Of a stretch of DNA of 64,000 bases, positions 27,938-30,008 are shown in pieces. The stretch is from an uncultured Schlesneria sp. (GTDB lineage Bacteria; Planctomycetota; Planctomycetia; Planctomycetales; Planctomycetaceae), in the NCBI GenBank assembly GCA_903840265.1, contig CAIMFH010000010.1, positions 1 through 64,000 on the forward strand, written 5' to 3'. The notes below the pieces were generated by a model. It was not told the DNA's origin. It was given only the letters and a program-made list of their open reading frames with translations, and made no database searches. The number at the start of each line of letters is the position of its first letter. Position 1 is the first letter of the stretch. The position numbers were made by a program, and so were the translations under genes.

Positions 27938-28605
27938 TGGCAGCGAGTCAGGATGACCAGCCATCTCCTTGACCGTTGAACCACATCGCGCGCCGCCATT
28001 TAAGGCCTCTCATGCGGAAGCGCCCGCTTATCCCAGTTGATCTTACAGATTTGGGCTTCCACCCGCCGTGGACCCAGCCTGTCGTTACGGGTATTAACGG
28101 CAGGACCAAAACAGTCGCCCGTAGACCACGGCAATCGAGGCATCTCCCCCATTTTGCCTCGCATTCGCGGGGAATCGATCGCATTTGGCCGTCAAACTCG
28201 TGTGCATCTTGACCAAGCGGCATTAACGCTTCAACCGGCACCGAAATTGACGTAAACACATTGCGAAATAACGGTTTGAGAGATTCAAGGCTGCTGCCCC
28301 TCCCTACCGATCAATTGTGCTAGTCCCGCCAAAACGAACCGATGCGAGGCACCCGGAGACAATGGGTGAATCGTTCGAAAGATACATGGCGCCAAGTTGG
28401 CGCGTGCGGAAGTTGTTTTGTGGACGACGTACGTTCGACGGTCGTAACGACCGGAACAGGGTGATGGCCCAGCCGAGGTAATTGCGACGCGCGTCGCAGG
28501 CGGCGCGGTTCAGCCGCCTGGAATTCCACGACTGACCGACACCTAGGTTCCGTGGGTTAGGACGACCCAAGGTTCGAGATTCCCAAGGGAAGGAGACGTT
28601 CTTCT

Positions 28606-29919
28606 ATGCGATGGATCAAGATGTCTGGGGCTGTGCTCGCTGCGATGAGCATGGCCAGCCTGGCTGAAGCCGGGTGGTTACATGGCAATACGGGGTGCTG
28701 CGGCGCCTCGAAAGCCAGCTGCACGTCTTCGTGCACACCGGCTTGTTGCCGACCTGTGATCGTGAAGCCTTGTTGCCCAACGGTCCATACCTATCAACGA
28801 CGATGTTCGGACATCAAGCCACCATGCTGCGACAGCAGCTGTGCTCCAGCGAGCTGCTGTGCTCCAGCTGGTGCCGGCAACTGTGCACCAGCATGTGCCG
28901 CCCCTGCTGCAGCTTGTGCTCCAGCTTGTGCTGCTCCTGCAGCCAACTGTGCACCAGCTTGTGCTGCTCCCGCTGCGAACTGTGGTCCAGCCTGTGCTCC
29001 AGGTTGTGCCGCTCCAGCAGCGAACTGTGCTCCTGCTTGTGCTGCTCCTGCAGCGAACTGTGGTCCAGCCGGTCCTGGCTGTGCCGCTCCAGCAGCTGCT
29101 TGTGCTCCAGCTTGTGCCGCTCCAGCCGCTAACTGCGGTCCGGTCGGTCCTGGTTGTGCTGCTCCAGCCGCTGCCTGTGCTCCAGCTTGTGCCGCTCCAG
29201 CCGCTACCGGCTGCTGCTCAACGGGCTGTGGTACAAAGGGTTGCTGCTTCAAGGGTCTGCATGGCTTGTTCGGCAAGTCCTGCTTCAAGAAGTCATGTTG
29301 CTCGTCAACATGTGCTCCTGCCTGTGCCGCTCCAGCTTGTGCTGCACCAGCGTGTGCCGCTCCAGCCAGCTGCACGACTAGCTGCACGCCAAAGTGCTGT
29401 GCTGATCCCTGTGCAATTGCTCAGTTGATCTACACATCACAAACGGCTTGCTATGCTCGTCAACGACGTGCTGCCATCCGCAAGCTTGGCAATCGTTACG
29501 ATTGCATCTGCAATCCAGAGATCATGACGGCCTTCGTCTACGCTCTGAATGATGCTGATGAACGCGTCCGACGTGAAGCTGCCGATGAAATCGGCGATCA
29601 AGTTCGCAAGAACTGCTGCTGCTGCCCAGAAGTCACCGCCGCCCTGACCTGTGCTCTGGGTGACTGTGATCGTGGTGTGGTTCGTCAAGCTGAACAGGCT
29701 CTCCGCCTGTGTGGATACGACGTCGTCAAGGGTTGCTGCGACAAGGGTTGCACGACCGCTGGTTGCTCGACTGGCTGCAGCAACGGCTGTGCCCCAGCCG
29801 GTGGCCCAGCAGTTGCCCCGATCAATGACAACGCCGCTCCAGCTCCAGTACCACCAGAAGAGAAGAAGGCTTCCAACAGCCGAAGCCGTATGTCCACGCT
29901 GCTCGGTCTCTTGAACTAG
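28606..29919 (+). CDS. Secreted Cys-rich repeat protein with HEAT-like C-terminal region
   Basis: Signal peptide; about 65 Cys in 437 aa; NCAPACAAPAA repeats; C-terminal ALNDADERVRREAADEIGD helical-repeat segment; own terminator. Confidence 0.8.
   Translation: MRWIKMSGAVLAAMSMASLAEAGWLHGNTGCCGASKASCTSSCTPACCRPVIVKPCCPTVHTYQRRCSDIKPPCCDSSCAPASCCAPAGAGNCAPACAAPAAACAPACAAPAANCAPACAAPAANCGPACAPGCAAPAANCAPACAAPAANCGPAGPGCAAPAAACAPACAAPAANCGPVGPGCAAPAAACAPACAAPAATGCCSTGCGTKGCCFKGLHGLFGKSCFKKSCCSSTCAPACAAPACAAPACAAPASCTTSCTPKCCADPCAIAQLIYTSQTACYARQRRAAIRKLGNRYDCICNPEIMTAFVYALNDADERVRREAADEIGDQVRKNCCCCPEVTAALTCALGDCDRGVVRQAEQALRLCGYDVVKGCCDKGCTTAGCSTGCSNGCAPAGGPAVAPINDNAAPAPVPPEEKKASNSRSRMSTLLGLLN
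28879..29205 (+). repeat. Coding tandem repeat, about 11-aa (33-nt) unit NCAPACAAPAA
   Basis: About ten degenerate units read directly in the translation. Confidence 0.85.
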
Positions 29920-29978
29920 TTAGCAGTATGGCTTAGGCGATAACCAATCCGAAAGATTGGGGTACTACAGTCAACAGC

Positions 29979-30008
29979 GGCCCCTGGAATTTTCCAGGGG
30001 CCGTTTTC
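29979..30008 (+). terminator. Rho-independent terminator
   Basis: cggcccctggaa-tt-ttccaggggccgtttt. Confidence 0.9.

What the first reader, a model, noticed from the sequence alone, without database searches (positions are those of the whole stretch)
28606..29919. Extremely Cys-rich repeat protein fused to HEAT-like segment
Signal peptide, about 65 Cys in 437 aa (near 15%), about ten NCAPACAAPAA units, CC/CxC clusters and a helical-repeat C-terminal part, with its own strong terminator. Cys-rich insoluble wall proteins are known in Planctomycetes, but this repeat type is not one I recognise; I see no YTV motif. A disulfide-cross-linked envelope component is plausible.
Basis: partly seen in the sequence, partly recalled or inferred. 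Interest (0 to 1): 0.7.

Follow-up and report, generated by a model that had tools for sequence, protein, structure and literature searches.

The report
Cysteine-rich exported HEAT protein, Planctomycetaceae
This gene encodes an uncharacterised, apparently exported bacterial protein, one seventh of it cysteine, that nearly every sampled member of one planctomycete family carries in single copy and that probably helps cross-link their protein-rich cell envelope; no description of the family was found.

Summary
In detail: ORF 28606-29919 (+), 437 aa, 66 Cys (15.1%; other window genes 1.3%), signal-like N-terminus, about ten N/A-CAPACAAPAA-type units, a HEAT_2 domain (res 287-367, E 5.7e-8) and a 13-bp terminator. 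The host is a Schlesneria relative. The gene belongs to an unnamed orthologous family found in 75 of 84 Planctomycetaceae genomes sampled, almost always single copy, and in none of 214 other genomes of the class (one weak HEAT hit). The HEAT domain, with about ten near-invariant Cys, is under strong purifying selection (dN/dS 0-0.07). The Cys/Ala/Pro linker is predicted disordered, changes repeat sequence between genera and repeat number between near-identical strains. It is not a YTV wall protein; the same genome has three of those. Codon bias matches the YTV genes, and a gene-specific 17-nt ribosome-binding leader is conserved across genera. Composition fits the Pro/Cys-rich, disulfide-stabilised, SDS-resistant envelope reported for Planctomyces. 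Against simple enzymatic cross-linking: no DsbA, DsbB or VKOR was found in the genome. Best reading: an exported, cross-linkable envelope scaffold protein with a HEAT docking head. Localisation and disulfides are inferred, not shown.

The parts
28553..28569 (+). candidate upstream stem-loop / inverted repeat TGGGTT-AGGAC-GACCCA
   Evidence: similar hairpin in several orthologue leaders, with arm changes that keep pairing, but a shuffle control was not exceeded; a lead only
28580..28596 (+). conserved leader TTCCCAAGGGAAGGAGA containing the Shine-Dalgarno sequence, 9 nt before the ATG
   Evidence: <=2 mismatches in 34 of 56 orthologues at nearly fixed spacing; exact match only here in the 7.5-Mb genome
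28606..29919 (+). Cys-rich HEAT protein gene (437 aa)
28606..28671 (+). signal peptide (res 1-22, AEA|G)
   Evidence: sequence reading; conserved in orthologues
28672..28839 (+). conserved N-terminal Cys motif (res 23-78; CCKPxIxRPC...VHTYQRxCSxIKPPCC)
   Evidence: alignments A3 and A6; profile finds it in the family
28879..29205 (+). variable Cys/Ala/Pro repeat linker (res 92-200)
   Evidence: predicted disordered; copy number varies
29206..29403 (+). second Cys-rich segment with CAPACAAPACAAPACAAPA (res 201-266)
29404..29739 (+). HEAT domain, three helix pairs, about 10 near-invariant Cys (res 267-378)
   Evidence: PF13646; AlphaFold2 pLDDT 82; alignments
29740..29916 (+). Cys/Pro-rich C-terminal tail ending STLLGLLN (LANLFGLxN in relatives)
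29976..30005 (+). intrinsic terminator, 13-bp stem

Best explanation
It is an exported structural protein of the planctomycetal cell envelope. Shown by sequence: signal-like N-terminus, a conserved Cys motif, a disordered Cys/Ala/Pro arm whose composition but not sequence is conserved, a strongly conserved HEAT head and a conserved tail. Inferred: after Sec export the Cys-rich arm and N-terminus form many intermolecular disulfides with copies of itself and probably with the YTV wall proteins, giving an insoluble mesh; the HEAT head docks on a conserved partner and fixes where the mesh is laid; repeat number sets arm length and number of links and is free to drift.
For: Cys 15.9% and Pro 10.6% of the mature chain. 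[quoted passage not shown]). In the same genome the most Cys-rich YTV protein has 16.3% Cys but only 6.7% Pro. Orthologues in 75 of 84 family genomes, single copy in nearly all. Codon adaptation to EF-Tu 0.645, above all but one of 26 window genes (median about 0.48) and equal to the YTV genes (0.61-0.68). Linker predicted disordered, HEAT folded. Repeat count 7 to 11 exact units and Cys 66 to 78 in a relative whose HEAT domain is identical in amino acids. HEAT dN/dS 0-0.07. Nucleotide-sugar genes lie upstream in 7 of 31 loci from other genera, a weak hint of surface biogenesis.
Against: No localisation, expression or redox data for this family. No DsbA, DsbB or VKOR detected, although the control genomes rang. 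Two homologues of one genus have lost the HEAT domain (L106, L143) and one orthologue has lost most Cys (L061), so neither half is indispensable everywhere. Four genomes of one genus and two others lack the gene.
Confidence: 0.52

Rival explanations
1. A metal- or thiol-ligand-binding exported protein: the CxC, CCC and CC clusters of the HEAT head and arm bind Zn, Cu or other soft metals (a buffer or sensor), not disulfides.
For: Near-invariant Cys in the HEAT domain include CxC (300/302), CCC (337-339), 282, 354 and 369, each in 57-62 of 62 orthologues. They sit in or beside inter-helix loops of the model. No Dsb/VKOR oxidation pathway found.
Against: No metal genes next to it. No metallothionein Pfam match. 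Linker Cys spacing and number drift freely between relatives, which suits cross-linking better than defined sites.
Confidence: 0.2
2. A component of a Planctomycetaceae-specific surface organ (stalk, holdfast, fimbria or crateriform pit) rather than of the general wall.
For: Restriction to one family. Planctomyces limnophilus differs from Pirellula by its stalk of fibril bundles (PMC3035269). Upstream sugar-nucleotide genes in several genera.
Against: Single copy and high codon bias suit both readings.
Confidence: 0.18
3. A general exported HEAT adaptor; Cys enrichment is a compositional drift of a fast-evolving linker without cross-linking function.
For: L061 keeps the HEAT domain and its neighbourhood while losing most Cys; the linker sequence is unconserved.
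Against: Linker Cys stays at a median of 20% across 60 orthologues while the sequence changes; HEAT Cys near invariant; L106 and L143 keep Cys and lose HEAT.
Confidence: 0.1

Closest known systems
Planctomycete YTV-domain cell wall proteins (PF07639)
   Same: Exported, 8-16% Cys, planctomycete-only, repeat-rich, similar codon bias; three such genes in this genome
   Different: No YTV repeat; Ala/Pro-rich arm instead of Val/Thr-rich repeats; carries a HEAT domain; restricted to one family; profile comparison of the N-terminal motif with YTV repeats gives 0.8% probability
HEAT_2 repeat proteins (PF13646) and artificial alphaRep proteins
   Same: Three helical hairpins; best solved matches are alphaRep structures, TM 0.63 by query length
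   Different: About ten conserved Cys in or near loops, and fused to an exported Cys-rich arm
Chlamydial cysteine-rich envelope proteins OmcA/OmcB
   Same: Would work alike: a disulfide-linked envelope shell in a PVC bacterium (PMC6752827)
   Different: No sequence match in Pfam; Chlamydia has DsbA/DsbB, this genome has neither

Membership tests
YTV wall protein family | YTV domain PF07639 | tested here: not met
   No match in the window protein or 23 orthologues at E<=0.1; hhalign 0.8%
YTV wall protein family | Cys-rich exported protein | tested here: met
   15.9% Cys in the mature chain; signal peptide by reading only
YTV wall protein family | Found in SDS-insoluble wall preparations | not testable with these tools
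   No proteome of a carrier was found at protein level; supplements could not be opened
HEAT_2 repeat superfamily | Pfam match above the curated cut-off | tested here: met
   33.4 bits against 27.7; 24 of 24 family members match at E<=0.1
HEAT_2 repeat superfamily | Alpha-solenoid fold | tested here: met
   Six helices, pLDDT 82, alphaRep matches; predicted model
Chlamydial OmcA/OmcB | Sequence family match | tested here: not met
   No such Pfam match
Chlamydial OmcA/OmcB | Disulfide cross-linked in the envelope | not testable with these tools
   DsbA, DsbB and VKOR Pfam families absent in this genome; redox state unknown
Metallothionein-like | Known metallothionein Pfam family | tested here: not met
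   No match
Metallothionein-like | Binds metal through Cys | not testable with these tools
   No coordinates or assay available

The most novel reading that the evidence does not exclude
This family is the main source of the proline- and cysteine-rich, disulfide-stabilised envelope described for Planctomyces in the 1980s: a second wall-protein class besides YTV, built from a disordered Cys/Ala/Pro polymer on a HEAT docking head, specific to Planctomycetaceae and oxidised without a canonical Dsb/VKOR pathway.
Probability: 0.2. Interest if true: 0.75.

Novelty: new variant of a known kind. Interest (0 to 1): 0.5.

Why it matters
Planctomycetes have an unusual protein-rich envelope whose building blocks are only partly known (YTV proteins). 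A family-wide, conserved, probably abundant Cys/Pro-rich exported protein is a direct candidate for a further building block in Planctomycetaceae, where genetic tools exist (Planctopirus limnophila). It makes an old chemical finding testable gene by gene, and the absence of the canonical oxidation pathway raises the question of how such proteins become cross-linked.

Tried and rejected
YTV membership: rejected. A paralogue in the own genome: none. Enzymatic domain: none. Rfam element in the region: only chance-level matches far below gathering scores. Full-length AlphaFold2: linker uninformative (pLDDT about 23-40). Leader stem-loop: compensatory-looking arms, but a crude shuffle control gives 12.2 of 20 on average against 15 observed, so not established. 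The weak hits G012:C119 and G009:C93 are shorter Cys-rich CAAPA proteins without HEAT, and G046:C90 is a low-complexity frame. Open-access literature: no paper in the library holds planctomycetes, cysteine-rich and HEAT repeat together.

Full report
OBSERVATION. Cys makes up 15.1% of the protein, against 1.26% in 26 other window genes. The anatomy is: signal-like residues 1-22; conserved Cys motif 23-78; Cys/Ala/Pro repeats 92-200, nine units whose codons differ, so they are not a fresh duplication; a second Cys-rich stretch to 266; HEAT domain 267-378; and a Cys/Pro tail. A 13-bp terminator follows at 29976-30005, before asnS.

HOST AND FAMILY. Relatives fetched by protein search come from Schlesneria and other planctomycete assemblies. 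With the HEAT alignment (A1), 75 of 84 genomes of the same family in a 298-genome class sample match, almost always once (one genus has three copies). Of 214 genomes of other families only one gives a weak match, a distant exported-looking HEAT protein. The N-terminal motif profile gives the same restriction. The family has no NCBIfam model, and only HEAT-type matches in Pfam.

WHAT EVOLVES AND WHAT DOES NOT. HEAT-domain dN/dS between the window gene and five relatives is 0-0.07. Cys 282, 300, 302, 337, 338, 339, 354, 369 and 378 are each present in 57-62 of 62 orthologues, and Cys 269 in 56. The linker behaves in the opposite way. Across 60 orthologues its length runs from 18 to 214 aa and its repeat changes from CAAPAANCAPA to CCAPAPKPA to CPPNCPPKCD, but Cys stays near 20% (median) and Ala+Pro near 40%. 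In a relative with an amino-acid-identical HEAT domain the CAPAC[AS]APA units go from 7 to 11 and Cys from 66 to 78. AlphaFold2 gives the linker pLDDT below 50. Total Cys is even or odd in different relatives, which suits intermolecular links or free thiols more than a fixed set of internal pairs (inference).

NATURAL DISSECTIONS. Two genomes of one genus (L106, L143) keep signal, N-terminal Cys region and the EAYFPSRF tail but have more Cys repeats in place of the HEAT domain. One genome (L061) keeps the HEAT domain and its gene neighbourhood but has lost most Cys. Six genomes (four of one genus) have nothing detectable. The two halves can therefore be separated, which argues for two functions, a cross-linkable arm and a docking head (inference).

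EXPRESSION SIGNS. The codon adaptation index against EF-Tu is 0.645 (HEAT part with tail alone 0.66). The three YTV genes of the same genome give 0.61-0.68, EF-Tu itself 0.728 and the window genes a median of about 0.48. The leader TTCCCAAGGGAAGGAGA, 9 nt before the ATG, is kept with at most 2 mismatches in 34 of 56 orthologues from many genera, yet the exact sequence occurs once in the 7.5-Mb genome, and with at most 2 mismatches in three places. Part of it is simply a strong Shine-Dalgarno sequence; conservation of TTCCCAA before it is unexplained.

NEIGHBOURHOOD. Upstream lie two NAD-dependent sugar epimerase/dehydratase genes and rmlA, downstream asnS. Epimerase or rmlA genes recur near the gene in 7 of 31 loci from other genera. 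This is a weak hint, since such genes are common.

MECHANISM. Best supported is an exported envelope structural protein (0.52). The link to the wall rests on three things: composition matching the Pro/Cys-rich, disulfide-stabilised, SDS-resistant envelope reported for Planctomyces (PMC3035269); parallels with the YTV proteins, which are top wall-fraction proteins in Tuwongella (PMC8567305), one of them counted essential in P. limnophila (PMC10632474); and conservation. The main difficulty is that DsbA, DsbB and VKOR families are not found in this 99.98%-complete genome. The YTV proteins of the same genome pose the same puzzle. Oxidation by another thioredoxin-fold protein or by oxygen, or metal binding instead of disulfides, remains open.

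KNOWN OR NEW. It may work like, but is not a member of, the YTV proteins or the chlamydial OmcA/OmcB. The HEAT membership is met. It is a new family and a new architecture within a known kind, Cys-rich planctomycete envelope proteins, with the function still inferred.

Noticed in passing
window 28580-28596: The 17-nt leader TTCCCAAGGGAAGGAGA is conserved at fixed spacing across many genera but is unique to this gene in the genome; possible gene-specific translational control.
   Followed up: partly
window 28553-28569: A short inverted repeat (TGGGTT-AGGAC-GACCCA) upstream of the leader has pairing-preserving differences among Schlesneria relatives; not significant in a crude shuffle test.
   Followed up: partly
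whole genome G000: No DsbA, DsbB or VKOR Pfam family match in a genome that encodes at least four proteins with 8-16% Cys; how exported thiols are oxidised is unexplained.
   Followed up: partly
L072, L073, L074: Three YTV wall-protein genes in the same genome, one with 16.3% Cys in the mature chain.
   Followed up: yes
L106 and L143: Homologues in one genus that lack the HEAT domain and carry more Cys repeats, with the same tail EAYFPSRF.
   Followed up: yes
L061: Orthologue that lost most Cys while keeping the HEAT domain and the upstream sugar-nucleotide genes.
   Followed up: partly
L107 and L108: Shorter Cys-rich CAAPA-repeat exported-looking proteins without HEAT, with a basic KSHCFKMPKLCLPK core, in two same-genus genomes.
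   Followed up: no
L110-L115: One genus carries three paralogues of the Cys/HEAT protein per genome, with very different arm lengths.
   Followed up: no
orthologue tails, e.g. L117, L147: Conserved C-terminal motif (EAYFPSRL...LANLFGLxN) that could be a sorting or anchoring signal; not searched in other proteins.
   Followed up: no
L116: Distant exported-looking HEAT protein with the CHPEI motif in a genome of another family.
   Followed up: no
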